From: Streptosporangium sp. NBC_01755
GTDB lineage: Bacteria; Actinomycetota; Actinomycetes; Streptosporangiales; Streptosporangiaceae
Length of the DNA stretch: 64,000 bases
Assembly (NCBI RefSeq): GCF_035917995.1
Contig: NZ_CP109131.1
Span: forward strand, 2,480,001-2,544,000
Direction of reading: 5' to 3'
The translations under genes were made by a program, and so were the position numbers. Positions within the stretch are counted from its first letter, which is position 1; each line of letters starts with the position of its first letter. Shown here in pieces: positions 31,340-50,013 of this stretch. A model generated the notes under the pieces. The model was not told where the DNA came from, made no database searches, and saw only the letters and a program-made list of their open reading frames with translations.

Positions 31340-31492
31340 CAGATTCGCCCACAGCCCCACGACGGCAACACGACAGCCCCGAGCCGTGCAGACACGGGGG
31401 GTACCAGGTCAAGGCTACTTGCCCTGGCGCACGACCTCGCAAGGAGTGGTAAATGCGCGATGAATCGTGCTGGGTTGACTACTCTCGGTTAT

Positions 31493-32221: not shown

Positions 32222-32322
32222 GATTCGCCGGGGCGGTGGGGTCGGGGTTCACCGGCCGGAGCGCCCATCCTGAGCAGCCGGGACCGGAAAGTCCGACGAT
32301 CGGGATTGTGGAGCGGGAGCAG

Positions 32323-33552
32323 ATGACGGCGCCTTTCGAGTGGACCCCCGACGCCCGTGAGCTGGCCGACCTCGAACTGCTGCTCTCCGGCGCCTTCAGC
32401 CCGCTGACGGGCTTCATGAGCTCGGCTGACGCGCACTCCGTGGACGAGTCCGGCACGCTCGTCGACGGCACGCCATGGCCCGCGCCGGTCACCCTCACGC
32501 TGCCCGGCGACCACCCCGCCGCCCCCGGCGACCGGATCACCCTGCGCGACCCCGAGGGTGCGGCACTGGCCGTGCTGACCGTCACCGGGCGCGAGGACGG
32601 CTTCACCGCCGGAGGAGTCGAGGCCCTGGACTCCCCCGAGCACGGGCCGTTCGCCCGGCTCCGCCGCCCCCCGGCGCGGGTCCGCGAGGAGGTGGGCGAG
32701 CGGGAGGCGGTTCTGGCCGTCACCATGCGCGGGCCGCTGGGCGACCTCGGCGAGATCGTGGCGACCGCGCAGGAGCTGAAGGCGTCGATCCTGCTTCTCC
32801 CGCTGGCGTACGGCGAGGGTGGGCCCGCGGTGGTCCGCGCCGCGCTCAGGGCCCGTGACGGACTGCCCGAGGGCACGCTCGTGGCGGTGGTGCCGCTGGC
32901 GCCCAGGGAGCCCGCCATCGACCTGGAGCTGCGCGAGCGGGTGGCCGAGGCCTATGGCGCGACCGAGCACCTGGCCGGCCCGAACCCCGTGACGCTCCCC
33001 GGCCCCCCGCACCGGCGGGGGCTGGTGATCTTCTTCACCGGCCTGTCGGGCTCCGGCAAGTCGACCGTCGCCCGGGGGCTGCGCGACGCGCTGCTTGAGC
33101 GTGGCAGCCGCACGGTGACCTATCTCGACGGCGACGTGGTGCGCCACCTGCTGTCGGCGGGGCTGACCTTCTCCAAGAAGGACCGCGACCTCAACATCCG
33201 CCGCATCGGCTTCGTCGCCGCCGAGGTCGCCAGGCACGGCGGCCTGGCGATCTGCGCGCCCATAGCGCCCTACGCCGCCACCCGCGAGGAGGTACGCGCG
33301 ATGGTCGAGGCCGTCGGCGCCGACTTCCTGCTGGTCCACGTCTCCACCCCGCTGGCGGAGTGCGAGCGCCGCGACCGCAAGGGGCTCTACGCCAAGGCCC
33401 GCGCGGGGCTCATTCCCGAGTTCACCGGCATCTCCGACCCGTACGAGGAGCCGGACGACGCCGACATGGAGATCGACACCACGGACATCAGCGTGGACCG
33501 GGCGGTGCACCAGGTGCTCGACCCGCTGATCCAGGGCGGCTGGATCCGCTGA
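32323..33552 (+). CDS. cysC: Adenylyl-sulfate (APS) kinase with degenerate ATP-sulfurylase-like N-terminus
   Basis: 409 residues. The C-terminal 200 residues are a complete APS kinase: P-loop GLSGSGKST, LDGDVVRHLL, DRDLNIRRIGFVAAEVARHGG and the FTGISDPYEEPDDADMEID end. It phosphorylates APS to PAPS, the sulfate donor. The N-terminal 220 residues look like the PUA-like part of ATP sulfurylase (LADLELLLSGAFSPLTGFM). They lack the catalytic QxRNPxHxxH and GRDHAG motifs, so they are unlikely to make APS. CysDN, encoded 12 kb away at the far side of the sulfation locus, probably does that. GTG 32308 is an alternative start. Confidence 0.9.
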   Translation: MTAPFEWTPDARELADLELLLSGAFSPLTGFMSSADAHSVDESGTLVDGTPWPAPVTLTLPGDHPAAPGDRITLRDPEGAALAVLTVTGREDGFTAGGVEALDSPEHGPFARLRRPPARVREEVGEREAVLAVTMRGPLGDLGEIVATAQELKASILLLPLAYGEGGPAVVRAALRARDGLPEGTLVAVVPLAPREPAIDLELRERVAEAYGATEHLAGPNPVTLPGPPHRRGLVIFFTGLSGSGKSTVARGLRDALLERGSRTVTYLDGDVVRHLLSAGLTFSKKDRDLNIRRIGFVAAEVARHGGLAICAPIAPYAATREEVRAMVEAVGADFLLVHVSTPLAECERRDRKGLYAKARAGLIPEFTGISDPYEEPDDADMEIDTTDISVDRAVHQVLDPLIQGGWIR

Positions 33553-33608
33553 CGGATCCCGGCCCCGCGAGGGCGTCGCGGCACGGCCGGGTGGCGCCCG
33601 CGGGGAAG

Positions 33609-33729
33609 GCGGGGCCGGCCCGGGAGGGGACGAGCGGGGGACGGAGAGGTCAGCCTGCGGGGACTGCGGGGCCGGCCCGGGAGGTGCGGAGCCGGCCCGG
33701 CGGAGACTGCGGGGTCAGCCTGTGGGGAC
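33609..33729. repeat. Short direct repeats at the GH26-type gene 3' end
   Basis: GCGGGGCCGGCCCGGGAGG occurs exactly at 33609-33627 and 33666-33684. A 16-bp block spanning the stop codon of the glycosidase gene (33714-33729) recurs with one change at 33649-33664. This suggests small local duplications of the gene end. Confidence 0.7.
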
Positions 33730-34917: not shown

Positions 34918-35114
34918 CGGTTCCTCACAGCTGTCGCGCGTACGCATTCGTCGACCATCACCGGGAAACACCTTCCCACCGCCTGGACGTGCCTCGTCCC
35001 CGACTTTACCGGTCCATGCCGGACCCCCGGTGCGGTCGACAGGAAATGTCGGATAAATAACCGTTATCTCACCGTGATTAGCAGGATCGGCGCGAAGAAA
35101 ATCTTGTGTATCGG

Positions 35115-35143
35115 TTCGGGGAAATGGAAAGCCGACCTATAGT
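35115..35143 (+). promoter_or_regulatory. Candidate promoter of the polysaccharide plus-strand operon
   Basis: -10 TATAGT (35138-35143), with 17 nt to a weak -35-like TTCGGG (35115-35120), in an AT-richer divergent gap (34918-35189). The leader would be about 40 nt before the Wzz start. Confidence 0.45.
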
Positions 35144-35189
35144 TCCTAGAGTTCCCAGCGCCTGTTCGCCGGAGAGGCACACGCGAAAC

Positions 35190-36419
35190 ATGAGCCCGTC
35201 ACCGGACGTCCCCGCCCGCCGCGAAGGCGGAGACCTGGCGGACTACGCGTCGCTCCTCCGCCGCCGGTGGCTGATCATCTGCTCCCTGCTCCTCACCGGA
35301 GCCGGTGGCGGCGCCGCCCTGCTACGGCTCACCCCGCCCTCCTACACCGCCTCCGCTCAGGTCCTGGTGACCGCCACCGGCTCGCAGGAGCAGACCAACC
35401 AGGTCACCAACCGCCAGCGCGAACCGCTCAACCTCGACACCGAGGCCCAGATCGCCCGGTCCGCGGTGGTCTCGGCGAAGGCCCGCGAAATGCCCGGCGA
35501 GCTTGGCTGTCCCGCCGAGGTCTCCGTGCCGCCCAACACCTCGGTCCTGGAGATCTCCTGCACCGCCACCGACCCAAGGGCGGCCGCCTCGGGCGCGAGC
35601 GCCTACGCCCTCGCCTACCTGGCCCAGCGCCGCGAGTCGTCCACCCAGATGCTCACGGCCCAGCTCAAGGCCGTGATGGTCAAGCTCAGGCAGGTCAACG
35701 CGGGCCTCGCCAAGGTCGCCACCACGCTTCCCGGCCTGAGCAGCGGCACCACGGAGCGGGCCCTCGCCCTCCAGCGGAGGGATGTCCTCGGCCGCCAGGC
35801 CCACAGCCTCACCGCCAGGTACGACGCCCTCAGGACCGTCGCCGTCACTCCCGGGTCGGTGATCAGCCAGGCGGTGGCCCCCACCACCCCCAGCGCTCCC
35901 CGCCCGCCCCTCTACCTGGGCAGCGGCCTCATGGCAGGACTGCTCTGCGGGGTCGGGCTCGCCTGGCTCCGTGACCGCCTCGACACCGCTCTGCGGACCA
36001 CCGCCGACGTCAGGCGCCTGACCGGCCTCGACGCCCTCGGCGACGAGGAGATGCGCCACCTGGCGGGCGCGGTGCTCGTGGTCGCCGTGCCCGGCACCTC
36101 CTCGCGCGACGTGAGAGGTGCGGTACGGACCCTGAACGACCGTGGAGTCCGCGTGGTCGGCGCCTTCGTCACCGGCGGCGACGACCTCTCGCCCGATCCC
36201 CCGGCCGGCGCCGCGCGGGCCCCGCACATCTCCTCCGCGGCACAGCCCGGCGCGGCGCGCTCCAGGAGAGCCGAACGGCCCCTCGCGGGCCTGGCCGGCG
36301 GTGACCGGCCCACACCGGAAACGCACGGCGCCCCGGACGCCATGGTCGCGCCCGGGACGTATGGGAACGTTCCGCCCGGGCGGCAGGCCGCGGCCGGGCG
36401 GAGGGGACGCCGGCTGTGA
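35190..36419 (+). CDS. Wzz-type polysaccharide chain-length / export regulator
   Basis: 409 residues. The first transmembrane helix is WLIICSLLLTGAGGGAALL after an N-terminal cytosolic stretch (DLADYASLLRRRW). A large extracytoplasmic helical region follows, then a second helix (LYLGSGLMAGLLCGVGLAWL) and a C-terminal tail of about 160 residues. The tail has no Walker motifs, so it is not a fused BY-kinase. A Rossmann-like strand in the tail (AVLVVAVPGTSSRDVRGAVRTLNDRGV) may be a degenerate kinase remnant. It sets polymer length together with the Wzy protein encoded next. Its stop overlaps the next start (GTGA). Confidence 0.85.
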   Translation: MSPSPDVPARREGGDLADYASLLRRRWLIICSLLLTGAGGGAALLRLTPPSYTASAQVLVTATGSQEQTNQVTNRQREPLNLDTEAQIARSAVVSAKAREMPGELGCPAEVSVPPNTSVLEISCTATDPRAAASGASAYALAYLAQRRESSTQMLTAQLKAVMVKLRQVNAGLAKVATTLPGLSSGTTERALALQRRDVLGRQAHSLTARYDALRTVAVTPGSVISQAVAPTTPSAPRPPLYLGSGLMAGLLCGVGLAWLRDRLDTALRTTADVRRLTGLDALGDEEMRHLAGAVLVVAVPGTSSRDVRGAVRTLNDRGVRVVGAFVTGGDDLSPDPPAGAARAPHISSAAQPGAARSRRAERPLAGLAGGDRPTPETHGAPDAMVAPGTYGNVPPGRQAAAGRRGRRL

Positions 36420-37708
36420 GGGGGCTGCGTCCGGCCGCCTGGCCGATCGCCGCGCTCCTGGTGGGATACCCGCTCTGGTGGGCGCTCGGTTTCGGCGGCC
36501 TGTCGGTGGTCGCGGTGGCCCCGGCGATGGCCCTGGTCCTCTGGCGGAGGCGGCCGATCAGGGCGCCGCGCGGGTTCGGGCTCTGGCTGCTGCTCCTGGC
36601 GGGCTACCTGATCAGCGCGCTGATGCTCGGCGAGATGCCACCGGACACCTACGGCGAGTTCGGCGCCGGGCGGCTCGTCGGCTACCTGATGCGACTCTGC
36701 CTCTACCTCTCAATGATGATCATGGTGCTCTACCTCGGCAACCTGACGGAGGAGGAGCTGCCCCAGCTCACCCTGGTGCGCATGCTCGGCGCGCTGTTCG
36801 TCACGACCGTCGCGGGCGGCCTGCTGGGCGTGCTCGCCCCACGCGCCGAGTTCACCTCACCGGTCGAGCTGATCCTCCCCGGCTGGATCAGCGACAACCC
36901 CTTCGTCCACAACCTGATCCATCCCACCGCCGCCCAGATGCAGAAGGTCCTCGGTCACGCCTCCCCCCGCCCGGAGGCGCCTTTCGAGTGGGCCAACGCC
37001 TGGGGCGGCAACATCTCGGTGCTGCTCGTCTGGTTCGTGGTCGGCTGGTGGGTGTACGGAGGCCCGCGCAGGCGCCTGGCCATGGTCCCGCTGGCCGCTC
37101 TGGCCGCGATCCCCGTCGTCTACTCGCTCAACCGCGGCCTGTGGATCGGGCTCGGCGTCGCCGCCGCGTACCTCCTGGTGCGCCTGGGCACCCGGGCCCG
37201 CGTCGCGGCCTGCTCGGCTCTGGCCGCGGGGACGCTGGTGTTCGCCCTCAGCCCGCTGCAGGCGATGGTGACCCAGCGGCTGGACCGCCCGCACAGCAAC
37301 GACATCCGTGCCTTCACCGTGTCGGCGACCATCGCCGCCGCGGGCACCTCACCGCTCATCGGCTACGGCAACACCAGAAACGCCATGGGCAACCACCGGA
37401 CGATCACCACCGGCAGGAGCGGCTGGTGTCCCACCTGCGGCCACCCGCCGCTGGGGAGCGACGGCCAGCTCTGGTACCTGATGATCACGCAGGGCTTCAC
37501 CGGGGCCGCGCTCTACGTGGCGTTCTTCGCCGGGGCCGTCCGCCGCCACTGGCGCGACCGGAGCCCGATCGGCATGGCGGGGGTCCTCGTGATGATCCTC
37601 ACCCTGCTCTACATGTTCGTCTACGACGGGCTGTTCACGCCGCTCAGCCTGTATCTGATCTCCTTCGCGCTGCTCTGGAGGAACTCGATGGCGAGCACCG
37701 CCGCATGA
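36416..37708 (+). CDS. O-antigen-ligase / Wzy-like polysaccharide polymerase
   Basis: 430 residues with about ten to eleven transmembrane helices. The large loop between the late helices contains SLNRGLWIGLGVAAAYLL and then ISPLIGYGN-type text (AAAGTSPLIGYGNTRNAMG). This is the layout of the Wzy_C/O-antigen ligase family, whose conserved Arg and Gly residues lie in these loops. A CPTCGHPPLGSDGQLW loop with a Cys pair faces the outside. It would join repeat units exported by the Wzx flippase. The GTG start overlaps the wzz stop, and its own stop overlaps the next gene (ATGA). Confidence 0.83.
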   Translation: MRGLRPAAWPIAALLVGYPLWWALGFGGLSVVAVAPAMALVLWRRRPIRAPRGFGLWLLLLAGYLISALMLGEMPPDTYGEFGAGRLVGYLMRLCLYLSMMIMVLYLGNLTEEELPQLTLVRMLGALFVTTVAGGLLGVLAPRAEFTSPVELILPGWISDNPFVHNLIHPTAAQMQKVLGHASPRPEAPFEWANAWGGNISVLLVWFVVGWWVYGGPRRRLAMVPLAALAAIPVVYSLNRGLWIGLGVAAAYLLVRLGTRARVAACSALAAGTLVFALSPLQAMVTQRLDRPHSNDIRAFTVSATIAAAGTSPLIGYGNTRNAMGNHRTITTGRSGWCPTCGHPPLGSDGQLWYLMITQGFTGAALYVAFFAGAVRRHWRDRSPIGMAGVLVMILTLLYMFVYDGLFTPLSLYLISFALLWRNSMASTAA

Positions 37709-38745
37709 ACGACGCGCGCGCCCGTCTGCGCTATCTCGACGAGACCATCGACCTGCTGTTCCCCGGTCCCGGCGCACCGAGGCCCTACACCCTGCTCCCC
37801 CACCGGCTGCTCCCCCGCAGGCTGGTCCCCCGCGCGTGGTGGCACCCCGGCGGGAGGCTCATCGTGCCGTCCGGCCGAAACGGCATCGAGAACCATCTGA
37901 GCGAGGTGTTCGGTGCTCCCGTCCGCGTCACGCTGCGCGTGCGCCCCGCCCTGCGCGCCAACCGCAAGCCGATCCTGGAGGCACGCGGCCCCGACGGGCC
38001 GATCGCCTTCGTGAAGGTCGGCGACACCGACCTGACCCGGGAGCTCGTCGCGCACGAGGCGCGGACGCTCGACCTGCTCGCCGACGTGCCGCTGAAGACG
38101 GTCGTCCCGCCCGCCGTGCTGCACCACGGATCCTGGCGCGGTCTGTCCGTGCTGGCGCTGACCCCGCTCCCCGTACGACGGGGGCGGATCCCCGGCGTCG
38201 TCCTCACCGACGCGATCGCCGAGATCGCCCACATCCCCTCGGACCCGGCCCCGGACCGCGCGCCCCCCGGAAACCCGATCCACGGGAACCCCACCCGGGT
38301 GACCCCGCACCCGGCAGCGCGTGCCTTCGAAGCCTCCGCTCAGGCCGCCGGGAAACCCGTACGGCCAGAGCCGCTCTCCGGACGGGGGTTCGCCTGGCAC
38401 GGGGACCTGACGCCCTGGAACGTCTCGCGGGGCCCCGACGGGCGGCTGCTGGTCTGGGACTGGGAGCGGTTCGGCACCGGGGTACCGCTCGGCTTCGACG
38501 CGGTCCACCACTTCTTCCAGCGGACCCTGCGCCGCGACGATCCGGCCACCGCCGCCAGAGCCTGCGTGGCGCGGGCCCTGCGGGTCCTGGCCCCGTTCGG
38601 ACTGTCGGCTTCCGAATCCCGGCTGACCGCCCTCCGCTACCTGATCACGCTCGCCGACCGGCACGCGGCCGACGGCCACACACCCCTCGGACCGCCCGAG
38701 CTCTGGCTCAACCCCGTCGTCGACTCCCAGGAGACCCTGCTTTGA
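37705..38745 (+). CDS. Aminoglycoside-phosphotransferase-like kinase
   Basis: 346 residues. The kinase-like C-terminal lobe has the catalytic loop HGDLTPWNVS (Asp and Asn ligands) and the metal Asp in LLVWDWERFG. The N-lobe ATP-binding Lys is probably in GPIAFVKVGD. The fold resembles APH/choline kinases, which phosphorylate small sugars or choline. In this operon the target may be a sugar or a phospho-substituent of the glycan, which is inference. It is translationally coupled to the Wzy gene by ATGA. The stop overlaps a TTG that opens a 29-residue reading frame created by a tandem duplication. Confidence 0.75.
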   Translation: MNDARARLRYLDETIDLLFPGPGAPRPYTLLPHRLLPRRLVPRAWWHPGGRLIVPSGRNGIENHLSEVFGAPVRVTLRVRPALRANRKPILEARGPDGPIAFVKVGDTDLTRELVAHEARTLDLLADVPLKTVVPPAVLHHGSWRGLSVLALTPLPVRRGRIPGVVLTDAIAEIAHIPSDPAPDRAPPGNPIHGNPTRVTPHPAARAFEASAQAAGKPVRPEPLSGRGFAWHGDLTPWNVSRGPDGRLLVWDWERFGTGVPLGFDAVHHFFQRTLRRDDPATAARACVARALRVLAPFGLSASESRLTALRYLITLADRHAADGHTPLGPPELWLNPVVDSQETLL

Positions 38746-38872
38746 AACCAGCGCTGAAGCGTTCGGTCCACGCGGCCGCGTGGACCACCCGGACCAACCC
38801 CGCCGCCGACCCCCGGGAGACCCCGCCGTGAAACCAGCGCTGAAGCGTTCGGTCCACGCGGCCGCGTGGACC
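38729..38872. repeat. 86-bp tandem duplication of the sulfotransferase 5' end
   Basis: Bases 38743-38786 and 38829-38872 are identical (44 bp), and the ribosome-binding regions before them also match. Each copy holds a 22-bp perfect palindrome (38765-38786, 38851-38872). The first copy opens a TTG frame of 29 residues (38742-38831) beginning KPALKRSVHAAAWT after the initiator. It ends at the real GTG start in a GTGA overlap, so coupling along the operon is preserved. Confidence 0.9.
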
Positions 38873-39685
38873 TTGGGGCGCCTCACCTCGGGGAGCCGGG
38901 TGCTGCCCTCCTTCCTCATCGTCGGAGCGCAGCGCTGCGGCACCACCTCCCTGTACCGCGCCCTGTCCCAGCACCCGCTCGCCCTTAAACCCGTACTGCG
39001 CAAGGGCGTGCACTACTTCGACACGGCGTACGACCGGGGCCTGTCCTGGTACCGGGCGCACTTTCCGCTACAGGTGTCGGCCTCCGCGCTGACCCGCAGG
39101 TACGGTTGCCGGCCCCAGGCCTTCGAGTCGTCGCCCTACTACCTGTTCCATCCCCTGGCCGGCCCCCGTATCGCCCGCGACCTGCCGGGCGCCAGGCTGA
39201 TCGTGCTGGTCCGCGACCCCGTCGAGCGGGCCTTCTCCGCACACGCCCACGAACTGGCCAGGGGCTTCGAGACGGAGCCGTCCTTCGCCAGGGCCGTGGA
39301 GCTGGAGGAGGAGCGGCTGGCCGGAGCGGCGCAAGCCCTGCGCGACTCGCCGCACTCGACGAACCCGGCCCACCGCCACCACGCCTACCTGGCCAGGGGC
39401 CGCTACGCCGAGCAGCTCGCCCGGCTGGAGCCGCTGGTCGGCAGGGAGCGTCTGCTCGTCCTCGACAGCGGCCGGTTCTTCGCCGAACCGGAGCTCGTCT
39501 ACGACCGCGTGCTGGCGTTCCTCGGGCTGCCGCACCTCGGCGATCCGGTGTTCGAACAGCACAACTCCCGGAGCAGACCCGCCCCGATGCCTCGCAGGCT
39601 CCGCCGCGAGCTGTCGGACCGCTTCAAGGAGCAGGACACCCTGCTGACCTCATGGCTGGGCGGGGAGCCGTCGTGGCGCCGCTGA
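38828..39685 (+). CDS. PAPS-dependent sulfotransferase 1
   Basis: 285 residues. The 5'-phosphosulfate-binding loop is GAQRCGTTSLYRALSQHP near residue 32. The 3'-phosphate motif is LIVLVRDPVERAFSAHAHE. The family middle KGVHYFD and SPYYLFHP and the end HNSRSRPAP are the typical Sulfotransfer_1 order for bacterial carbohydrate sulfotransferases. It would move sulfate from PAPS to a hydroxyl of the glycan. GTG 38828 has GGGAG about 8 nt upstream. The operon context (Wzy before, Wzx after) supports action on a lipid-linked repeat unit in the cytoplasm. Confidence 0.9.
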   Translation: MKPALKRSVHAAAWTLGRLTSGSRVLPSFLIVGAQRCGTTSLYRALSQHPLALKPVLRKGVHYFDTAYDRGLSWYRAHFPLQVSASALTRRYGCRPQAFESSPYYLFHPLAGPRIARDLPGARLIVLVRDPVERAFSAHAHELARGFETEPSFARAVELEEERLAGAAQALRDSPHSTNPAHRHHAYLARGRYAEQLARLEPLVGRERLLVLDSGRFFAEPELVYDRVLAFLGLPHLGDPVFEQHNSRSRPAPMPRRLRRELSDRFKEQDTLLTSWLGGEPSWRR

Positions 39686-40971
39686 CCCTCACCCGTCTGG
39701 CGGGTCTGACCGGGGTCACGCGAAGCGGGGTGGCGGGGCTGCTGGGAGCGTGCGCCGGGGCCGCCGCCCAGTTCCTGACCGTCGTGCTGGTCACCAGGGG
39801 GGTGGGTCAGGAGACGGCGGGTGTCTTCTTCTCGGCGACCGCCCTGTGCCTGGCGGTCGCCACGGTCCTGCGGCTGGACGCGGGGAACGGGCTCGTCTAC
39901 TTCATCGCCAGGTCCCGGCCGTTCGAATACCGCTGCACCTCCGGCTACGTCCGCGCGGCGCTCGTCCCGGTCGCGTCACTCTCGCTGGCGGCCGCCTGCG
40001 CGGTCGTCCTCAGCACCTCCGACCCCGAGCTGCGGGTGCTGGCGGTGGCTCTGCCCGTGGTGACCTGCTCAGGCGTCGTGGTGAGCGCGACCCGAGGGTT
40101 CGGCTCGATGCGGCCGACCGTGCTACTGGACGGCGTGCTCCAGCCGGTGGCCCAGCTCGCCCTGGTCGCGGCGGTGGTGCTCGCGGGCCGCGATTCCGTG
40201 TCGCTGCTCGTCGCGGCCTGGGCACTGCCGTACCTGCCGGTGCTGTTGCTGGCCTCGGTCTGGTTGCGCCGGCGGCTGCCGCGGACGCCCTACCTGCCGG
40301 GCACCGCGCACGACCTGTGGCGCCACACCTGGCCCCGATCGCTGGCGGCCGGGATCCAGGCGGTGTTCCAGCGGCTGGACATTGTGATCGTGGCGTTGCT
40401 GGCCGGGCCGGCCGAGGCCGCCGTGTACACCGCCGCCACCCGTTTCAAGATCGTGGGTCAGCTGGCCGGCCAGGGCCTGTCGCAGGCCACCCAACCGAGG
40501 CTGGTGCGGGCCCTGGCCGAAGGCGACCTGCCACGTGCCCGGAAGCTGTACCAGTCGGCCACCGTCTGGCTGGTCCTGCTGACCTGGCCGGTCTGGCTCG
40601 GGTACGCGGCGCTCGCTCCGTGGCTGCTCGGAGCCGTCTTCGGGGACGGCTACGCCTCCGGCGCACCGGTGGCGATCGTGCTGGCCGCGACGATGACGCT
40701 CGCCACCGCGTGCGGGATGGCCGACGTGGTGCTGACCGCCGCCGGGCACACCGGCTCCAGCCTGGCCAACCTGACCGCCGCCATCGCGACGACCGCGGTA
40801 CTGGACCTGCTGCTGATCCCCTCCCTGGGCTCGCTCGGCGCCGCCCTCGGCTGGGCGGGGGGCACGGTGGTCAAGAACCTGCTGCCGCTCTGGCACATCC
40901 ACCGCCGGTACGACCTGCGGCCCTTCGGCGCGCACAGCCTGGCCGCCCTGAGCCCGTGGCGAGCAGCCTGA
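39673..40971 (+). CDS. Wzx-type polysaccharide flippase
   Basis: 432 residues with about twelve to fourteen transmembrane helices and short loops, the MATE/MVF-superfamily Wzx layout. Characteristic parts are ETAGVFFSATALCLAVATVL, RFKIVGQLAGQGLSQATQPRL and a late ALGWAGGTVVKNLLPLW. It would flip undecaprenyl-linked repeat units across the membrane. GTG 39673 is chosen because GGGGAG lies 5 nt upstream, giving a 13-bp overlap with the sulfotransferase gene. Its stop overlaps the next start (TGATG). Confidence 0.85.
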   Translation: MAPLTLTRLAGLTGVTRSGVAGLLGACAGAAAQFLTVVLVTRGVGQETAGVFFSATALCLAVATVLRLDAGNGLVYFIARSRPFEYRCTSGYVRAALVPVASLSLAAACAVVLSTSDPELRVLAVALPVVTCSGVVVSATRGFGSMRPTVLLDGVLQPVAQLALVAAVVLAGRDSVSLLVAAWALPYLPVLLLASVWLRRRLPRTPYLPGTAHDLWRHTWPRSLAAGIQAVFQRLDIVIVALLAGPAEAAVYTAATRFKIVGQLAGQGLSQATQPRLVRALAEGDLPRARKLYQSATVWLVLLTWPVWLGYAALAPWLLGAVFGDGYASGAPVAIVLAATMTLATACGMADVVLTAAGHTGSSLANLTAAIATTAVLDLLLIPSLGSLGAALGWAGGTVVKNLLPLWHIHRRYDLRPFGAHSLAALSPWRAA

Positions 40972-41903: not shown

Positions 41904-41917
41904 CGGTCGGCGGTCTT

Positions 41918-43231
41918 TCAGGAGAAGAGGCCCCGAAGGAGAGAGAGCGCGAGGAGCCTGAGGGCGTACGGCAGGTCGTCGACCAGATAACGGCGGGCGA
42001 GCCTGCCCGGCTCCCGCGTCAGCCGGAAGAGCCACTCCAGGCCACCTCTGCGCATCCACGCCGGAGCCCGCCGGACGGTGCCCGCGGCGAAGGCGATCGC
42101 CGCGCCGCAGCCGATGAACCAGGTGCCCGGCAGGTCCCGGCGGAGCGAGGCGATGAGCCGCTCCTGCTTGGGGAAGCCCAGCCCGACGAAGACCAACCGG
42201 GGTCCTGCGGCGATCACGGCGTCGCGCACCCGGGCGTAGCTCTCGGGGTCGTCCTCGAACCCGTACGGCGGGGCGTCGACTCCGGCGATCATCAGTTTCG
42301 GGTGGCGGCCCACCAGCTCGCGGGCCGCCTGCACGGCCGCGCCCTCGGGACCACCCAGCAGGTATACGGGGTGGTGGTAGAAGGCGGCGGCCTCCGACAG
42401 GGACCAGATCAGGTCGGCGCCGGCGACCCGGCCGGGGAGTGGGGTACCGAGCAGTCTCGCCGCCCACACCAGCGGCATGCCGTCCGCCAGCACGAGGTCG
42501 GCGCCCTCGACGAGCCCGCGGACCCGCTCATCGCGAGCGACGATCCGGCTGATGTCGACGTTCGGGGTGACGAGGTGGCCGCCTTCACCGCGTTTCAGCG
42601 CGGCGACCACGTGGTCGACCACCTCGCCCTCGGTCATCGGGTCGATCGCGACGCCCGCCACGTGCACGCGCCTGCGCAGGCGTCTGCGGGTGGCCTTGTC
42701 CGGCCGGGGCCGCCGGCGGGGAGCGACCTGCGCCGCCCCCCGCCTGGCGGCCGGCGTCCCGGCCCGCCCGGCGACGGCGGGCAGGCCGGGCAGGCCGGGC
42801 AGGCCGGGCAGGCCGGGCAGGCCGGGCAGGCCGGGCAGGCCGGGCAGGCCGGGCAGGCCGGGCAGGCCGGGCACCGGATCGTACCCGGTGGTCGCGGACC
42901 GGTGGTCGGTGCTGGGCGGGATCGGCATCACCGCATAACGAGCGGCCGCGACCGCGGCCTTCCCCGTCACGGACGAGGCGGACCGCGGGTCGTAGCGAGC
43001 GGTCACGCGCGCACGATCGACGGCCCGCCCCACCTCCGGCGGAACGACGGCCAGATCGTGGCGAGCGATCATTGACGGGCGCTCGACGGCCGGCCCCAGC
43101 GTGGGCGGAGCGACCTGCGAGCGGTGGCGCGCGAGCACCGGCAGGCGTTCGACGGCCTGACCCGCCAGAGGCGGGGCGACCTGCGGGCCGTAGCGGACTG
43201 TCACGCGCGGACGCTCGGCGATGGGCGCCAT
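41918..43231 (-). CDS. WecG/TagA/CpsF glycosyltransferase with repeat-rich N-terminal extension
   Basis: 437 residues. The catalytic domain is the last 245: VAIDPMTEGEVVDHV, LVTPNVDISRIV, LADGMPLVWAARLLG, YLLGGPEGAA, VFVGLGFPKQERLIA and FIGCGAAIAFAAG, the GT26 signature. Ahead of it lies an extension of about 190 residues. It has four 22-residue repeats (residues 6-93, pattern ER-x-V-x-ARY then a PP core), then ten Gly-Leu-Pro triplets, then an Arg-rich segment. ATG 43231 overlaps the stop of the GT2 gene (TGATG), so the extension is genuinely translated. GT26 enzymes add N-acetylmannosamine or related residues to lipid-linked glycans. Confidence 0.87.
   Translation of the reverse strand: MAPIAERPRVTVRYGPQVAPPLAGQAVERLPVLARHRSQVAPPTLGPAVERPSMIARHDLAVVPPEVGRAVDRARVTARYDPRSASSVTGKAAVAAARYAVMPIPPSTDHRSATTGYDPVPGLPGLPGLPGLPGLPGLPGLPGLPGLPGLPAVAGRAGTPAARRGAAQVAPRRRPRPDKATRRRLRRRVHVAGVAIDPMTEGEVVDHVVAALKRGEGGHLVTPNVDISRIVARDERVRGLVEGADLVLADGMPLVWAARLLGTPLPGRVAGADLIWSLSEAAAFYHHPVYLLGGPEGAAVQAARELVGRHPKLMIAGVDAPPYGFEDDPESYARVRDAVIAAGPRLVFVGLGFPKQERLIASLRRDLPGTWFIGCGAAIAFAAGTVRRAPAWMRRGGLEWLFRLTREPGRLARRYLVDDLPYALRLLALSLLRGLFS
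42779..42868. repeat. 9-bp x10 perfect tandem repeat encoding (Gly-Leu-Pro)10
   Basis: Ten identical 9-bp units (gggcaggcc on the plus strand), in frame in the glycosyltransferase N-terminal extension. Length changes would add or remove whole triplets without shifting frame. Confidence 0.95.
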
Positions 43232-45134: not shown

Positions 45135-45524
45135 GAATCCTTACCCGATGGATACGGAACGTGCCGAGGCTAGCGCGGAGCGTAACGGAGAGGTCAGAGA
45201 ACGGATAAAGGATCTACCCAGCGGGTTTGGCGCCGCCCGCCTCGAACGGAGTGCTCCCGAAGCCCCTGCCCCGGAGACGGCCCCTGGACGGCTCGGGGAA
45301 CGGCGCCGGAGGCGATCCCGTGAACGGTCCCGTGGACAGCTCAGGGAACGGCGCCGTGAACGATCCCGGAGACGACGCCGGAGACGGTCCTGGAGACGGT
45401 CCTGGAGACGGTCCCGTGGACGGCTCAGGGAACGGCGAACCGCCCGCGACCGGTGAGCCTGCCCTCTCCCCGTCGTGCGGAGGAGAAGAGGTTACGGCGG
45501 CCGGGCGCGGGCGGCGGGGTGGGA
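45135..45524. repeat. 390-bp gap with degenerate tandem repeats (cysN to sulfotransferase 3)
   Basis: No supported gene. The core holds three exact 12-bp units (ggagacggtcct-type, 45380-45415), flanked by longer degenerate copies containing gggaacggcgcc and ggacggctcagggaacgg. Plus-strand frames through it give only Asp/Gly/Pro/Asn- or Arg/Ser-rich low complexity. It may hold the promoter or a processing site for the distal genes of the minus arm. Confidence 0.65.
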
Positions 45525-46787
45525 CTACTTGGCGTCGACGATCATCCCGGCGCCGACCGTGTTGTTGGTGGCCTCGTCCACGAGGATGAAGCCGCCGGTG
45601 AGGCGGTTGCGGGCGTAGTCGTCCACGAACAGGGGCTGGGTGATGCGGAGCGAGACGCGTCCGATCTCGTTGAGTCCAAGCGAGGATGCGGTCTCGTCCC
45701 GGTGCAGGGTGTTGACGTCCAGCCGGTAGTGCAGCTCCTTGACCAGGGCACGGGCCGTACGAGTGGTGTGCTTGATGGTCAGTTTGGCGCGCGGGGCCAG
45801 CCTGGCCACGTCCGCCATCCAGCAGACCATCGCCTCCAGCTCCTGGGAGACGTGCGGCTGGTTGTTCGGACGGCAGATCATGTCACCGCGCGAGATGTCG
45901 ATGTCGTCCTCCAGCCGGAGGGTCACCGACATCGGCGGGAACGCCTCGTCGACCGGGCCGTCGAAGGTGTCGATCGACGCGATGCGCGTGGCCAGGCCCG
46001 AGGGCAGGTGCATGACCTCGTCCCCCGGCTTCAGCACACCTCCGGCGACCTGGCCGGCGTAGCCTCGGTAGTCGTGGAAGGCCGGGTCGGTGGCCCGTTG
46101 CGGGCGGATGACGTACTGCACGGGGAAGCGCACGTCGACCAGGTTGCGGTCGGAGGCGATGTGCACGTGCTCCAGGTGGTGGAGGAGCGAGGAGCCGTTG
46201 TACCAGGGGGTGTTCTCCGAGCGTGACACCACGTTGTCACCGTGCAGCGCCGAGATCGGGATGAACGTCAGGTCCGGCGCGTTCAGCTTGGAGGCGAACG
46301 CGGTGAACTCCTCGCGGATCTCCTCGAAGCGCTCCTGCGAGTAGTCGACCAGGTCCATCTTGTTGACGGCCAGGACCAGGTGCGGCACCCGCAGCAGCGT
46401 GGTGAGGAACGCGTGCCGCCGCGACTGCTCCAGCACGCCCTTGCGCGCGTCGATCAGGACGATCGCCAGGTCGGCGGTGGAGGCACCGGTGACCATGTTG
46501 CGGGTGTACTGGATGTGCCCGGGGGTGTCGGCGATGATGAACTTACGCCTGGGAGTGGCGAAGTAGCGGTAGGCCACGTCGATGGTGATGCCCTGCTCCC
46601 GCTCGGCCCGCAGGCCGTCGGTGAGAAGAGACAGGTCGGTGTATTCGGTGCCGCGGTCACGGGAGGTGCGCTCGACGGCCTCAAGCTGGTCCTCGAAGAT
46701 CGCCTTGGAGTCGAAGAGCAGCCGCCCGATGAGCGTCGACTTTCCGTCGTCGACGCTTCCCGCCGTGGCAAAGCGAAGGATGTCCAT
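45525..46787 (-). CDS. cysN: Sulfate adenylyltransferase subunit 1 (GTPase)
   Basis: 420 residues, a CysN without a fused APS kinase. The GTPase motifs are G1 GSVDDGKST, G3 DTPGH and G4 NKMD. EF-Tu-like domains II and III follow (from NLVDVRFPVQYVIRP). GTP hydrolysis drives APS formation by CysD from ATP and sulfate. The APS kinase needed to complete PAPS is the separate cysC at 32.3-33.5 kb. The start is ATG 46787. The gene lies 79 nt after cysD on the same strand. Confidence 0.94.
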   Translation of the reverse strand: MDILRFATAGSVDDGKSTLIGRLLFDSKAIFEDQLEAVERTSRDRGTEYTDLSLLTDGLRAEREQGITIDVAYRYFATPRRKFIIADTPGHIQYTRNMVTGASTADLAIVLIDARKGVLEQSRRHAFLTTLLRVPHLVLAVNKMDLVDYSQERFEEIREEFTAFASKLNAPDLTFIPISALHGDNVVSRSENTPWYNGSSLLHHLEHVHIASDRNLVDVRFPVQYVIRPQRATDPAFHDYRGYAGQVAGGVLKPGDEVMHLPSGLATRIASIDTFDGPVDEAFPPMSVTLRLEDDIDISRGDMICRPNNQPHVSQELEAMVCWMADVARLAPRAKLTIKHTTRTARALVKELHYRLDVNTLHRDETASSLGLNEIGRVSLRITQPLFVDDYARNRLTGGFILVDEATNNTVGAGMIVDAK

Positions 46788-46866
46788 CAGAGGTGTTCTC
46801 CAGAGGTCGTACGGCTTGCGGCGCGGGAGCGCGCGGGAAGTAGGGAGGAGGGAGGGCGGGTGAGCA

Positions 46867-47781
46867 CTAGAAGTAGCCCTCCCTCTTGCGGTCCTCCATG
46901 GATGCCTCGGAGGCGCGGTCGTCGGCGCGGGTGGCGCCACGCTCGGTGATCCGGGTCACCGCGATCTCCTCGATGATCGCCTCGACCGTCGCGGCACCCG
47001 ACTGGACCGCGCCGGTGCAGGTCACGTCGCCGACCGTGCGGTAGCGGACCGTCATCTCCTGGAGCGGCTCGTCCTCGTCGCGGATGATGAACTCGCTGTC
47101 GGCCAGCAGCATGCCGTCGCGCTCGAACACCTTGCGGGTGTGGGCGTAGTAGATCGAGGGAATCTCGATGTCCTCGCGCCGGATGTAGTCCCAGATGTCG
47201 AGCTCGGTCCAGTTGGACAGCGGGAACACCCGGATGTGCTCGCCCTTGCGGATCCTGGCGTTGTAGAGGTTCCACAGCTCGGGGCGCTGGTTCTTGGGGT
47301 CCCACTGGCCGAAGTCGTCGCGGAAGGAGAACACCCGCTCCTTGGCGCGTGCCTTCTCCTCGTCGCGACGGGCGCCGCCGAACACGGCGTCGTACTCGTT
47401 CTCCTCGATCGCGTCCAGCAGCGTCGTGGTCTGCAGCCGGTTGCGCGAGGCCCTGCGGCCGGTCTCCTCGACGACGCGCCCGGCGTCGATGGAGTCCTGG
47501 ACGCTGGCGACGACCAGGCGCGCGCCCAGCTCCACGGCGCGGCGGTCACGGAAATCGATGACCTCTGCGAAGTTGTGACCGGTGTCGACGTGCATCAGTG
47601 GGAAGGGAATCGGCGCGGGCCAGAACGCCTTCTCCGCGATGCGGAGCATGACGATGGAGTCCTTACCACCGGAGAAGAGCAGACAGGGACGCTCGAACTC
47701 GGCCGCGACCTCACGCATGATGTGGATGGCCTCTGCCTCGAGGACGTCGAGCTGCGACGTGGTGTAGTCGCGCTGAAGCAT
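46867..47781 (-). CDS. cysD: Sulfate adenylyltransferase subunit 2
   Basis: 304 residues. It is an ATP-pyrophosphatase-type catalytic subunit that makes APS from sulfate and ATP. The PP-loop is LLFSGGKDSIVMLRIAEKAF. MHVDTGHNFAEVIDFRDR and RPELWNLYNARIRKGEHIRVFPLSNWTELDIWDYI are diagnostic; the C-terminus ends in SMEDRKREGYF. ATG 47781 has AGGAGAG about 5 nt upstream. The operon order, cysQ before and cysN after, puts sulfate activation and PAP removal under one control. Confidence 0.95.
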   Translation of the reverse strand: MLQRDYTTSQLDVLEAEAIHIMREVAAEFERPCLLFSGGKDSIVMLRIAEKAFWPAPIPFPLMHVDTGHNFAEVIDFRDRRAVELGARLVVASVQDSIDAGRVVEETGRRASRNRLQTTTLLDAIEENEYDAVFGGARRDEEKARAKERVFSFRDDFGQWDPKNQRPELWNLYNARIRKGEHIRVFPLSNWTELDIWDYIRREDIEIPSIYYAHTRKVFERDGMLLADSEFIIRDEDEPLQEMTVRYRTVGDVTCTGAVQSGAATVEAIIEEIAVTRITERGATRADDRASEASMEDRKREGYF

Positions 47782-47800
47782 CAAACTCTCCTAGCGGGGA

Positions 47801-48568
47801 TTAGCGGTGCAGATCCCGGATTCCAGCGAGCAACGTCGGCGCCAGTCCCGGTAGGGATACAAGGATATCCGGCAATGAGGGGTCGGGCTGGTTGTAGACC
47901 AGCGGCGAGCCGTCGATGCGGCTGGCGTGGGCCCCCGCGGCGAGGGCCACCGCGACGGGCGCGGCGGAGTCCCACTCGTACTGGCCTCCGGCGTGCACGT
48001 AGGCCTCGACCGTTCCGGTGAGCACCGCGGAGATCTTGGCTCCCGCCGATCCGATCGGCACCAGGTCCGCGCCGACAAGACCGGCCAGATTCTGGACGAA
48101 CTCCGGCGGCCGGGTCCTGCTGACCGCGATCCGCGGCCTGGCGCCCGCCTCGGGGGCGGACCGCACCGGAGGTTCGAGGGTGGAGAGCGTACGGCCCTGG
48201 GCCGGCAGCGCGACGGCTCCGGCCGTCAGCGTGCCGCGCTCCCAGAGCGCCACGTGGACCGCCCAGTCCTCGCGACCCTCCTCGGCGAACTCGCGGGTGC
48301 CGTCCAGCGGGTCAACGATCCAGACGCGCTCGGCACGGAGCCGGCGCGGGTCGAGACGCTCCTCGCTGGTCGCCTCCTCCGACAGCACGCTGTCGTCCGG
48401 GCGCAGCCGTGCCAGGGCCTCCGTCAGGAACAGGTGGGAGGCGACGTCGCCCTCCTTGCGCAGCTCGGAGGGGTTGCCGAAGCCCCGCTCCGCGCGCAGG
48501 GCCGCCAGCTTCTCGCCGGCCGTCGTCGCCAACTCCGCGGCGAGTGTGTGATCGTCGCGAACGGTCAT
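47801..48568 (-). CDS. cysQ: 3'(2'),5'-bisphosphate nucleotidase (CysQ-like)
   Basis: 255 residues of the inositol-monophosphatase superfamily. The metal-binding motifs are EGDVASH, LSEEATSEE and WIVDPLDGTREF; the late motif is YEWDSAAPVAVALAAGA. It converts PAP, the by-product of every sulfotransferase reaction, to AMP and so keeps sulfotransferases from product inhibition. The start ATG 48568 overlaps the stop of the priming transferase (TGATG). Its place beside cysD and three sulfotransferases supports PAP as the main substrate over inositol phosphate. Confidence 0.9.
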   Translation of the reverse strand: MTVRDDHTLAAELATTAGEKLAALRAERGFGNPSELRKEGDVASHLFLTEALARLRPDDSVLSEEATSEERLDPRRLRAERVWIVDPLDGTREFAEEGREDWAVHVALWERGTLTAGAVALPAQGRTLSTLEPPVRSAPEAGARPRIAVSRTRPPEFVQNLAGLVGADLVPIGSAGAKISAVLTGTVEAYVHAGGQYEWDSAAPVAVALAAGAHASRIDGSPLVYNQPDPSLPDILVSLPGLAPTLLAGIRDLHR

Positions 48569-50013
48569 CAGTATGCTCCAGCTCCTCGCGCGACAGCCGA
48601 CCAGGTCTTCCACAGGATCTGCAGGTCCAGCATGAGGGACCAGCTCTCCACGTAACGCAGGTCCAACCGTACCGATTCCTCCCAAGACAGGTCAGACCGA
48701 CCACTCACCTGCCACAGGCCGGTCATGCCCGGCTTGACCAGCAGCCGGCGGCGGACATCGTCACCGTACCCGGCCACCTCCTCCGGCAGTGGCGGCCGGG
48801 GGCCCACCAGGGACATGTGTCCCAGCAGCACGTTGATCAGCTGGGGCAGCTCGTCCAGCGAGTGTCGGCGCAGCCAGGCGCCCAGCGGGGTCACCCTCGG
48901 ATCATTCTTGATCTTGAAGAGCGGACCCTGTCCGTCACTGGACAGGGTGATCTTCCGACGCTCGGCATCGGCGCGCATCGTCCGGAACTTGTAGATCGTG
49001 AACTCGGCTCCGTCGCGGCCCACCCTCGTCTGCCGGAAGAGCGCGGGCCCGGACCCGGAGGCCCGCACGGCCGCCGCCACCCCCACCAGCAGCGGGAGCA
49101 GCGCCGCCAGCAGCATCCCGGCGCCGACGCGGTCGAACAGATTCTTGACCACCTGGCGCAGGCCGGAGATCTCAGGATGGTCCACATGCAGCAGCGGCAG
49201 CCCAGCCGCCGGGCGGATGGTGATCCGCGGCCCGGCCACCTCCATCAGAGCGGGGGCCACGACCAGGTCCGTGTCGGTCTTCTCCAGCCGCCAGGCCAGC
49301 CTCCGCAGCGCCACCCCGTCCATTTCCGGACAGGCGAGCACGGCCACGGTGTCGGCGTGGACCTGCCCGACCGCAAGCGCGACGTCGGAGAAGTCACCGA
49401 GGACCGGAACGCCCTCCACGTCGCCTATCCCGTCGTGCGGGGCGCAGGCCCCGACGACCTCCATGCCGTGGTAGCGCTCCCGGCGGAACCGGCGGACCAA
49501 CTCGGTGATCGCCACCCGGTGACCCACCGCCACCACCCGCCGCATGCATCTGCCCCGGGCCCGCCTGCGGTGCAGGGAGCGGCGCAGCCCATACCGCGCC
49601 AGGAGGGTGAGCAACGTCGTCAGCGGGAGGGCCAGGACCACGTAGCCGCGGGCCACATCGGTCTTGGTGAGGTAGGCGCCGACAGCGAGGGCGGCGGTGA
49701 GCATGAAGCCGCACTGGAGGATCCGCTGGAACTCCTCCGAGCCCAGGCCGATGAGCCGAGGCTCGTAGGCGCGGTTCAGCGCGACCACGCAGACCCAGAC
49801 GGCGGGCAGTGCGGCGCTCGACACGACGTACGGGAAGACGTAGGCGGTAACCTCGCCGAATCGAACGAGCAGTGCGAGGGCTCCGGCCAGGGCGGCGCAG
49901 GCGGTGTCGGCGACGACGGCCATCGCGCGGTGCCCCCGCACCCAGTCAGGCATGCGCCGGCGCGAGGCCGACACGACTCCGGATGCGTCCTGGACCGCGG
50001 TCACGTCGCGCAC
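48568..50013 (-). CDS. Polyprenyl-phosphate sugar-1-phosphate transferase (WcaJ/CpsE-type priming enzyme)
   Basis: 481 residues. The N-terminal half has four to five transmembrane helices (from MAVVADTACAALAGALALLV) and a Rossmann-like CoA-binding-type region (MRRVVAVGHRVAITELVRRF). The C-terminal bacterial sugar transferase domain opens at KNLFDRVGAGMLLAALLP. It includes RQTRVGRDGAEFTIYKFRTM, RRHSLDELPQLINVLLG and MSLVGPRPPLPEEV. It starts the repeat unit by placing a sugar phosphate on undecaprenyl phosphate. GTG 50013 follows GGGGAG closely. It heads the minus arm of the sulfated polysaccharide locus. Confidence 0.9.
   Translation of the reverse strand: MRDVTAVQDASGVVSASRRRMPDWVRGHRAMAVVADTACAALAGALALLVRFGEVTAYVFPYVVSSAALPAVWVCVVALNRAYEPRLIGLGSEEFQRILQCGFMLTAALAVGAYLTKTDVARGYVVLALPLTTLLTLLARYGLRRSLHRRRARGRCMRRVVAVGHRVAITELVRRFRRERYHGMEVVGACAPHDGIGDVEGVPVLGDFSDVALAVGQVHADTVAVLACPEMDGVALRRLAWRLEKTDTDLVVAPALMEVAGPRITIRPAAGLPLLHVDHPEISGLRQVVKNLFDRVGAGMLLAALLPLLVGVAAAVRASGSGPALFRQTRVGRDGAEFTIYKFRTMRADAERRKITLSSDGQGPLFKIKNDPRVTPLGAWLRRHSLDELPQLINVLLGHMSLVGPRPPLPEEVAGYGDDVRRRLLVKPGMTGLWQVSGRSDLSWEESVRLDLRYVESWSLMLDLQILWKTWSAVARGAGAY

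What the first reader, a model, noticed from the sequence alone, without database searches (positions are those of the whole stretch)
32308..50013. Compact locus for a sulfated exopolysaccharide in an actinomycete
Two converging arms hold every step from sulfate activation to export. CysD, CysN and a separate CysC make PAPS, three different sulfotransferases use it, and CysQ removes PAP. A priming transferase, GT2 and GT26 build the repeat unit, and Wzx, Wzy and Wzz export and polymerise it. A GH26-like enzyme and an APH-like kinase are extra. No APS/PAPS reductase or sulfite reductase is present, so sulfate goes to esters rather than cysteine. Sulfated glycans are known in mycobacteria and marine organisms, but a Wzx/Wzy-type sulfated polysaccharide locus like this in a soil-type actinomycete is not something I know as described.
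Basis: partly seen in the sequence, partly recalled or inferred. Interest (0 to 1): 0.88.

Follow-up and report, generated by a model that had tools for sequence, protein, structure and literature searches.

The report
Gene cluster for sulfated spore-coat sugar
A soil bacterium of the genus Streptosporangium carries an old, well-conserved gene cluster that very likely builds a sulfate-decorated sugar polymer, and a related cluster was recently shown by gene deletion to be needed for normal spore sacs in another actinomycete.

Summary
Window 32.3-50.0 kb (genus Streptosporangium, inferred) holds CysC, Wzz, Wzy, an APH-like kinase, Wzx, three sulfotransferases, GT26, GT2, CysN, CysD, CysQ and a priming transferase in two converging arms, plus a GH26-like enzyme. 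It is well conserved: 18 of 22 loci with Wzy at 70% identity or more keep 12 scored genes in order. A homologous cluster, wps-1 of Actinoplanes missouriensis, was published in June 2026; most of its single-gene deletions deform sporangia, and its authors predict a sulfated polysaccharide. So the type is described; this is a variant with a third sulfotransferase and with sulfate activation and PAP removal built in. The inference that sulfate goes to esters 'rather than cysteine' fails: CysD, CysN and CysC here are the only copies found in the genome, and a CysH of APS-reductase type and a sulfite reductase lie elsewhere. CysDN must serve both; CysC makes PAPS. The presumed A. missouriensis counterpart of CysC has a degenerate sulfurylase half and is that genome's only APS kinase, which would explain the 'unexpected' sporangium defect of its deletion as loss of PAPS. 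Chemical proof of sulfate is missing.

The parts
31493..32221 (+). SAM methyltransferase-like gene next to the block (role in it unproven)
   Evidence: Methyltransf_11 31.9 bits; present in 73 of 80 named loci
32323..33552 (+). CysC: APS kinase with a shortened, degenerate ATP-sulfurylase-like N-terminal part; makes PAPS
   Evidence: APS_kinase 189.9 bits, PUA_2 68.7 bits, no PF01747 match; against 1i2d and 3cr8 the sulfurylase histidine motif and a stretch before the kinase are missing while the P-loop is kept; only APS kinase found in the genome
33715..34896 (-). GH26-like glycoside hydrolase with an N-terminal hydrophobic stretch
   Evidence: phmmer to 2vi0 E 9.6e-11; AlphaFold model pLDDT 85.5, Foldseek top 2bv9 E 4.4e-20; two Glu invariant in 121 of 121 rows
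35106..36419 (+). Wzz chain-length determinant
   Evidence: PF02706 38.7 bits
36416..37708 (+). Wzy polymerase
   Evidence: PF04932 26.6 bits, under cut-off; 34 of 60 relatives
37705..38745 (+). APH/fructosamine-kinase-fold kinase (WpsI-like)
   Evidence: No Pfam hit; model pLDDT 88.9, Foldseek 3jr1 E 6.1e-7, 1nd4 E 4.9e-6; K104, E118, H232, D234, N239, D252 and E254 invariant in 133 of 133 rows
38825..39685 (+). Sulfotransferase ST1 (heparan-sulfate type; WpsH-like); start uncertain
   Evidence: PF13469 48.4 bits; phmmer to heparan sulfate 3-O- and N-sulfotransferases E 2e-13 to 1e-8, best to 3rnl, a protein named only Sulfotransferase, E 5.5e-19; motif residues near-invariant in 136 rows
39652..40971 (+). 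Wzx flippase (start uncertain)
   Evidence: PF01943 37.5 bits
40971..41903 (+). Sulfotransferase ST2 (a clade-specific addition)
   Evidence: PF13469 41.5 bits; 21 of 22 loci with Wzy >=70%, 0 of 15 loci with Wzy <=50%
41918..43231 (-). GT26 (WecG/TagA/CpsF) glycosyltransferase with a repeat-bearing, probably disordered N-terminal extension
   Evidence: PF03808 186.8 bits
43231..44172 (-). GT2 glycosyltransferase
   Evidence: PF00535 51.1 bits
44169..45134 (-). Sulfotransferase ST3 (WpsB-like)
   Evidence: PF13469 49.7 bits; motif residues near-invariant in 103 rows
45525..46787 (-). CysN, GTPase subunit of ATP sulfurylase
   Evidence: TIGR02034 578 bits; only copy found in the genome at E<=1e-40
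46867..47784 (-). CysD, catalytic subunit of ATP sulfurylase
   Evidence: TIGR02039 458.9 bits; the only other PAPS_reduct match in the genome is CysH
47801..48685 (-). CysQ, PAP phosphatase (first ~40 residues doubtful)
   Evidence: PF00459 113.5 bits; phmmer to 5djf E 1.3e-66
48568..50010 (-). Priming polyprenyl-phosphate hexose-1-phosphate transferase (start uncertain)
   Evidence: PF02397 221.7 bits; TIGR03025 415.8 bits over cut-off

Best explanation
The block is the Streptosporangiaceae form of a wps-1-type cluster and makes a sulfated, Wzx/Wzy-polymerised extracellular polysaccharide, most likely part of the spore or sporangium envelope. CysDN turns sulfate into APS. APS then splits: CysH and sulfite reductase elsewhere in the genome take part of it to cysteine, and CysC phosphorylates the rest to PAPS. 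The priming transferase loads a hexose-1-phosphate on undecaprenyl phosphate and GT26 and GT2 extend it. ST1, ST2 and ST3 add ester sulfate, most likely to the lipid-linked repeat unit on the cytoplasmic side, and CysQ removes the inhibitory PAP. Wzx flips the unit and Wzy and Wzz polymerise it. The GH26-like enzyme probably trims the chain outside. The APH-fold kinase is probably catalytic and may phosphorylate a sugar of the unit (guess). Shown by computation: gene content, order, conservation, active-site residues, single-copy CysD/N/C, and homology to wps-1. Inferred: the sulfate ester, the order of steps, the sugars, and the place of the polymer. Shown by others for wps-1 only: gene deletions deform sporangia and cut spore release.
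For: Gene content. Order conserved in 18 of 22 loci with Wzy >=70% and in 48 of 80 named loci. Same order as wps-1: in L155 (8,773,466-bp single contig whose size and gene order fit A. missouriensis) run GH26 42%, CysC (63% in the kinase part, 43% before it), Wzz 34%, Wzy 40%, kinase 38%, ST1 58%, Wzx 45%, GT26 57%, ST3 53%, GT2 52%, against WpsK-WpsA plus AMIS_7390 in PMC13390465. ST1 in 34 of 34 Wzy genomes and 2 of 26 others. Sulfotransferase, kinase and hydrolase motif residues near-invariant. One CysN, one CysD, one CysC and no Sat found. CysH with CC..CxxC in 11 of 11 genomes, scoring 235.1 on the APS_reductase model (cut-off 235.3) and 172 on PAPS_reductase (cut-off 254.2). CysQ matches a solved PAP phosphatase.
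Against: No chemistry: I found no measurement of sulfate on such a polymer. A strong APS kinase match is in 69 of 70 genomes tested, including family members without this Wzy such as G016, G020 and G021, so CysC alone does not prove a link. AMIS_7390 was not switched on with wps-1 on day 3 of sporangium formation, so it is under other control. In G473 CysN lies at 8.12 Mb and the cluster at 0.79 Mb of an 8.77-Mb contig, so CysDN linkage is not universal. The block is kept in genera that, as I recall, make no sporangia (Nonomuraea, Microbispora, Herbidospora), so a strictly sporangial role is unlikely; in five Microbispora loci (L140, L142, L144-L146) the right arm was not found within 10 kb of Wzy. 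In A. missouriensis deletion of the ST3 counterpart (WpsB) left sporangia looking normal and only lowered spore release. ST2 and ST3 match no solved structure at E<=0.01, so their substrates are open. NF002537, named phosphoadenylyl-sulfate reductase, also matches CysH over its cut-off. The APH-like kinase has no assigned substrate.
Confidence: 0.77

Rival explanations
1. The polymer is sulfated but is an ordinary vegetative capsule or exopolysaccharide with no special part in spores or sporangia.
For: The block is kept across genera recalled as non-sporangiate, and its Wzy in 163 of 250 genomes (30 of 44 genera) of the family that holds G473. AMIS_7390 was not switched on with wps-1 at day 3.
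Against: The homologous wps-1 cluster is transcribed during sporangium formation and most of its deletions give squashed or distorted sporangia with no macroscopic growth change (PMC13390465). Wzy is highly conserved for a capsule gene: 81-94% identical to the window's in 15 of 15 other genomes of the genus.
Confidence: 0.25
2. CysD, CysN, CysC and CysQ are housekeeping sulfur-assimilation genes that sit beside an exopolysaccharide locus, and sulfation is minor or absent.
For: CysDN is the only ATP sulfurylase found in the genome and must serve cysteine synthesis. A strong APS kinase match is in 69 of 70 genomes, block or no block. CysN is far from the cluster in G473.
Against: CysH looks like an APS reductase, so PAPS and CysC are probably not needed for cysteine (precedent in passages of PMC1266029). 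Three sulfotransferases with conserved motifs are in the block and ST1 tracks Wzy across genomes. In A. missouriensis deletion of the CysC counterpart gave a severe sporangium defect and no macroscopic growth change.
Confidence: 0.1
3. The sulfotransferases modify an antibiotic or a lipid and only happen to lie among polysaccharide genes.
For: The Sulfotransfer_3 family is broad; ST2 and ST3 match no solved structure.
Against: ST1's nearest solved relatives with a named substrate act on heparan sulfate. Co-occurrence with Wzy is 34 of 34 against 2 of 26, within 6.1 kb in 33 of 34. The family scans of the block's genes show no secondary-metabolite scaffold gene.
Confidence: 0.04

Closest known systems
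wps-1 cluster of Actinoplanes missouriensis (AMIS_7280-7380, with adjacent AMIS_7390), PMC13390465
   Same: GT2, GT26, Wzx, Wzy, Wzz, kinase-like protein, two sulfotransferases, and CysC next to Wzz, with the same order CysC-Wzz-Wzy-kinase-ST1-Wzx; protein identities 34-63% to L155, the genome that fits A. missouriensis.
   Different: The window has a third sulfotransferase (ST2) where wps-1 has WpsF, WpsE and WpsD (methyltransferase, GH26, DUF4262); CysN, CysD, CysQ and a priming transferase are contiguous in the window and are not in the published wps-1; the window's GH26 matches the gene beyond the CysC counterpart better (42%) than the WpsE counterpart (28%).
Synechan cluster of Synechocystis (PMC8205485; search listing and abstract start only)
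   Same: A bacterial sulfated exopolysaccharide with a known biosynthetic cluster; the listing counts Wzy and sulfotransferase among its terms.
   Different: Cyanobacterial; no sequence comparison was made here.
Sulfated capsules of marine Gram-negatives (Vibrio sp. KMM 8419, PMC11641403; Cobetia marina KMM 1449, PMC11766843; search listing and abstract starts only)
   Same: Sulfated capsular polysaccharide with a solved structure and a genomic account of its biosynthesis (titles).
   Different: Marine Gram-negative hosts; not compared by sequence here. They also show that bacterial sulfated polysaccharides are not limited to cyanobacteria.
imp cluster of A. missouriensis (PMC12691653; abstract and passages)
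   Same: Polysaccharide for the sporangium matrix.
   Different: The terms sulfate and sulfated do not occur in that paper's main text; a different cluster.

Membership tests
wps-1-type cluster | Wzx, Wzy, Wzz, kinase-like protein and ST1 side by side in the order Wzz-Wzy-kinase-ST1-Wzx | tested here: met
   Window gene order against L155 and the published order
wps-1-type cluster | GT26 and GT2 as the only glycosyltransferases besides priming | tested here: met
wps-1-type cluster | At least two sulfotransferases of different families | tested here: met
   ST1 58% and ST3 53% to the L155 counterparts; ST2 extra
wps-1-type cluster | GH26 enzyme | tested here: met
   closer to the gene beyond CysC in L155 than to the WpsE counterpart
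wps-1-type cluster | WpsD (DUF4262) and WpsF (methyltransferase) inside the cluster | tested here: not met
   ST2 occupies the place after Wzx; a methyltransferase-like gene lies outside, upstream of CysC. WpsD was dispensable in A. missouriensis, WpsF was not
wps-1-type cluster | Needed for sporangium formation | not testable with these tools
   Needs gene deletion in Streptosporangium
Sulfated-polysaccharide locus | PAPS synthesis, sulfotransferases with conserved PAPS-binding residues, PAP removal | tested here: met
   which residues bind PAPS is recalled
Sulfated-polysaccharide locus | Ester sulfate on the isolated polymer | not testable with these tools
   No chemical data seen in the listings
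Assimilatory sulfate reduction operon | APS/PAPS reductase and sulfite reductase in the same locus | tested here: not met
   They lie at G000 814.6-817.4 kb, 1.7 Mb away
Assimilatory sulfate reduction pathway of this genome | An ATP sulfurylase other than the locus CysDN | tested here: not met
   One CysN, one CysD and one CysH, no PF01747
APS reductase (as against PAPS reductase), genome CysH | Two Cys pairs that hold the 4Fe-4S cluster | tested here: met
   CC..CxxC in 11 of 11 genomes; link of cluster and APS use from a reference title in PMC1266029 and recall; the family models do not settle the substrate

The most novel reading that the evidence does not exclude
Sulfated spore-envelope polysaccharides are an ancient and widespread trait of spore-forming actinomycetes, made by one homologous wps-1-type machine. 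Their sulfation depends on an APS kinase with a dead sulfurylase half, and PAPS supply is a developmental requirement: the sporangium defect of the A. missouriensis AMIS_7390 mutant is loss of sulfation, not of sulfur amino acids.
Probability: 0.5. Interest if true: 0.75.

Novelty: new variant of a known kind. Interest (0 to 1): 0.55.

Why it matters
Sulfated glycans are usually linked to animals, algae and marine microbes. A conserved cluster in soil actinomycetes would make sulfate esters part of bacterial development, would provide new heparan-type bacterial sulfotransferases, and makes the open question of whether sporangium matrix is sulfated directly testable through cysC, ST1 and cysQ. 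It also gives a simple reading of a published result that its authors called unexpected.

Tried and rejected
Rejected: a flippase-sulfotransferase fusion suggested by the 717-aa ORF 39750-41903; only its last ~310 codons are coding (ST2), and Wzx is in another frame. Rejected: the ORF 37836-38831 as the kinase; the real frame is 37705-38745. Rejected: a frameshift in the ST2 C-terminus; near-invariant residues run to residue 298 of 311 in 96 rows. Rejected: CysC as a marker of the block; a strong APS kinase match is in 69 of 70 genomes. Rejected: a strictly sporangium-specific locus, because of the genera. Not followed: regulator binding sites, signal peptides and transmembrane predictions, a species tree of the block, and where the right arm lies in the Microbispora loci. 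A mistake: the protein L155:18491-19933:- was an antisense ORF (no families); the GH26-like gene there is on the other strand (L155:18695-19858:+).

Rows dropped and repeats: proteins with internal stops or under 60% query cover were left out of the motif counts. For the same reason the 22 loci and the 80 overlap. The 80 named loci are the best 80 of 287 matches. Of the 32 without the complete order, 13 are shorter than 21 kb and 19 are full-length; of the 19, seven lack only cysN, twelve more or other genes; whether the missing genes lie beyond the 10-kb flank was not tested.

Full report
WHAT IS THERE. The window lies in an 8.15-Mb single-contig genome. The closest named relative of its Wzy is from Streptosporangium amethystogenes (94%), so the genus is Streptosporangium by inference. 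Between mfd (27782-31360) and pth/rplY/prs lies the reported block. Two corrections of frame were needed: the 717-aa ORF at 39750 is coding only in its last part (ST2), with Wzx in another frame, and the kinase is at 37705-38745. The APH-like protein has no Pfam match at E<=1, but a confident AlphaFold model (pLDDT 88.9) matches fructosamine-3-kinase and aminoglycoside phosphotransferase structures, with low TM-scores (0.47 and below by query length). The GH26-like protein's model (pLDDT 85.5) matches GH26 lichenases best.

CONSERVATION. Wzy was found in 34 of 60 relatives, including all 16 genomes of the genus, the window's own among them. Of 37 loci read, 22 have Wzy at 70% identity or more; 18 of these 22 carry all 12 scored genes from cysC to cysN in the window's order and strand. 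The four others are two cut by contig ends (L044, L051), one without a Wzx match (L047) and one without a GH26 match (L049). The named scan kept the best 80 of 287 matches; all 80 belong to Streptosporangiaceae as far as I know their genera. Of these 80, 48 carry the complete order; in 31 of the other 32 the genes that are seen keep the order, and one (L117) is rearranged. Thirteen of the 32 are shorter than 21 kb; whether genes missing from the 19 full-length ones lie beyond the flank was not tested. ST2 is in 21 of the 22 loci with Wzy at 70% or more (L044 is cut before it) and in 0 of 15 with Wzy at 50% or less; among the 20 loci it is in L173 (Wzy 72%), with weak partial matches in L170 and L171. 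So ST2 looks like a clade-specific addition. In the class, Wzy reaches E<=1e-30 in 58 of 296 sampled genomes, and E<=1e-60 in 163 of 250 genomes of the family that holds G473.

THE KNOWN RELATIVE. PMC13390465 (Tezuka and Ohnishi, June 2026; abstract, sections 6, 16 and 17 and passages read) describes wps-1 of Actinoplanes missouriensis: GT2, sulfotransferase, GT26, DUF4262, GH26, methyltransferase, Wzx, sulfotransferase, kinase-like, Wzy, Wzz, with AMIS_7390 next to it. The authors predict a sulfated exopolysaccharide and report squashed or abnormal sporangia in most single mutants; the wpsB and wpsD mutants looked normal, wpsB with fewer released spores. The window's block is therefore homologous to wps-1, ST1 corresponding to WpsH and ST3 to WpsB. 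Differences are in Closest known systems. In another genome of that family (L165, G392) cysN, cysD, cysQ and the priming transferase also adjoin the block, so that arrangement is not unique to Streptosporangiaceae.

SULFATE METABOLISM. In the whole genome there are two PAPS_reduct matches, CysD here and one at 816.8 kb; the latter is CysH, with a sulfite reductase and CbiX beside it and no CysD or CysN among the ten ORFs scanned there. There is one CysN, no Sat, and one APS kinase. CysDN must therefore serve cysteine too. CysH has CC and CxxC pairs and scores 235.1 on TIGR02055 APS_reductase (cut-off 235.3) against 172 on TIGR02057 PAPS_reductase (cut-off 254.2); NF002537, named phosphoadenylyl-sulfate reductase, scores 265.9 over its cut-off of 154, so the family names alone do not settle the substrate. 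C. glutamicum and M. tuberculosis CysH are APS reductases (passages of PMC1266029). On this reading PAPS is not needed for cysteine and CysC works for sulfation. Against exclusivity, APS kinase is not tied to the block: of 70 genomes with and without it, 67 have exactly one strong copy, G030 three, G052 two, and G042 only a weak match. PAPS must have other uses in genomes without the block.

AN EXPLANATION FOR A PUBLISHED SURPRISE. The authors found a severe sporangium defect in the AMIS_7390 deletion 'unexpectedly' and described the gene as a sulfate adenylyltransferase/APS-kinase family member of sulfur amino acid synthesis. The CysC-like gene next to Wzz in L155 has an APS kinase half at 184 bits and a short, weak ATP-sulfurylase match of 44.7 bits. 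Its histidine motif differs from that of the fungal ATP sulfurylase 1i2d and resembles that of 3cr8, its best solved match. From memory, 3cr8 is the two-domain APS kinase of Thiobacillus denitrificans that was reported to lack ATP-sulfurylase activity; I did not look this up. The window's protein has lost the motif's histidine and a stretch of roughly 80-90 residues before the kinase, relative to 3cr8. The L155 gene is the only APS kinase of G473; that genome's single CysN is at 8.12 Mb. So its deletion should abolish PAPS while leaving APS and cysteine synthesis, in line with the reported absence of macroscopic growth differences. This is an inference from sequence; no activity was assayed. 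Against a tight tie, AMIS_7390 was not activated with wps-1 on day 3.

LINK OF SULFOTRANSFERASE AND POLYMER. ST1 (E<=1e-30) is in 34 of 34 genomes with Wzy (E<=1e-3) and in 2 of 26 without (G024, G048); in 33 of 34 the two lie on one contig 0.9-6.0 kb apart, and in G028 on different contigs. Fisher's exact p is 9e-15, but related genomes are not independent. ST1's best solved match is a protein named only Sulfotransferase (3rnl), followed by heparan sulfate sulfotransferases. Motif residues of ST1, ST2 and ST3, two glutamates of the GH26-like protein and the kinase residues are near-invariant in 136, 96, 103, 121 and 133 rows (85-124 distinct sequences); which residues bind PAPS or catalyse is recalled, not computed.

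LITERATURE. Ten searches were made. Those aimed at a sulfated polysaccharide of actinomycetes or at sporangium polymers gave wps-1 as the only actinomycete cluster of this kind that I recognised in titles and abstract starts; two searches listed 12 of 16 and 12 of 20 papers. The library holds open-licence papers only. The remark in PMC13390465 that bacterial sulfated polysaccharides are exclusive to cyanobacteria does not fit the listed papers on Vibrio and Cobetia capsules.

VERDICT. A real, conserved, very probably sulfated-polysaccharide cluster; a new variant of a type described in 2026. Main additions here: homology and wide distribution, the integrated third sulfotransferase and sulfate-activation arm, the correction on cysteine, and the PAPS reading of AMIS_7390.

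Noticed in passing
window 42778-42873: Perfect 9-bp tandem repeat, 10.7 copies, coding a collagen-like (Gly-Leu-Pro) run in the N-terminal extension of GT26. The run is absent from the S. amethystogenes relative L034, and the extension varies in length among the relatives looked at.
   Followed up: partly
window 38709-38872: 86-bp tandem duplication (1.9 copies, 91% match) across the junction of the kinase gene and ST1.
   Followed up: no
window 45270-45423: Degenerate 12-bp repeat array in the gap between ST3 and CysN.
   Followed up: no
window 36416-37708 (residues 338 and 341 of Wzy): Two cysteines of a CxxCG motif invariant in 12 of 12 aligned Wzy proteins, unusual for a membrane polymerase as far as I recall.
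   Followed up: no
window 44169-45134: Three cysteines (56, 58, 65) invariant in 103 of 103 ST3 rows; possible metal or disulfide site.
   Followed up: no
L155:18695-19858: A GH26-like gene just beyond the CysC counterpart, 42% identical to the window's GH26 gene and outside the published wps-1 limits; a candidate extra member of that cluster.
   Followed up: partly
L117: Sinosporangium siamense: the wzz-wzy pair is moved downstream of wzx, and no ST2 match is present.
   Followed up: no
L047 and L081: Relatives (L081 is Planomonospora parontospora) with the block but no Wzx match between ST1 and ST2; flippase lost, moved or too divergent.
   Followed up: no
L063 and G025: A genome with six ST1-like sulfotransferases, three in a row near Wzy and three on another contig.
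   Followed up: no
L140, L142, L144-L146: Five Microbispora loci in which GT26, GT2, ST3 and CysN were not found within 10 kb downstream of Wzy; the right arm may lie elsewhere.
   Followed up: no
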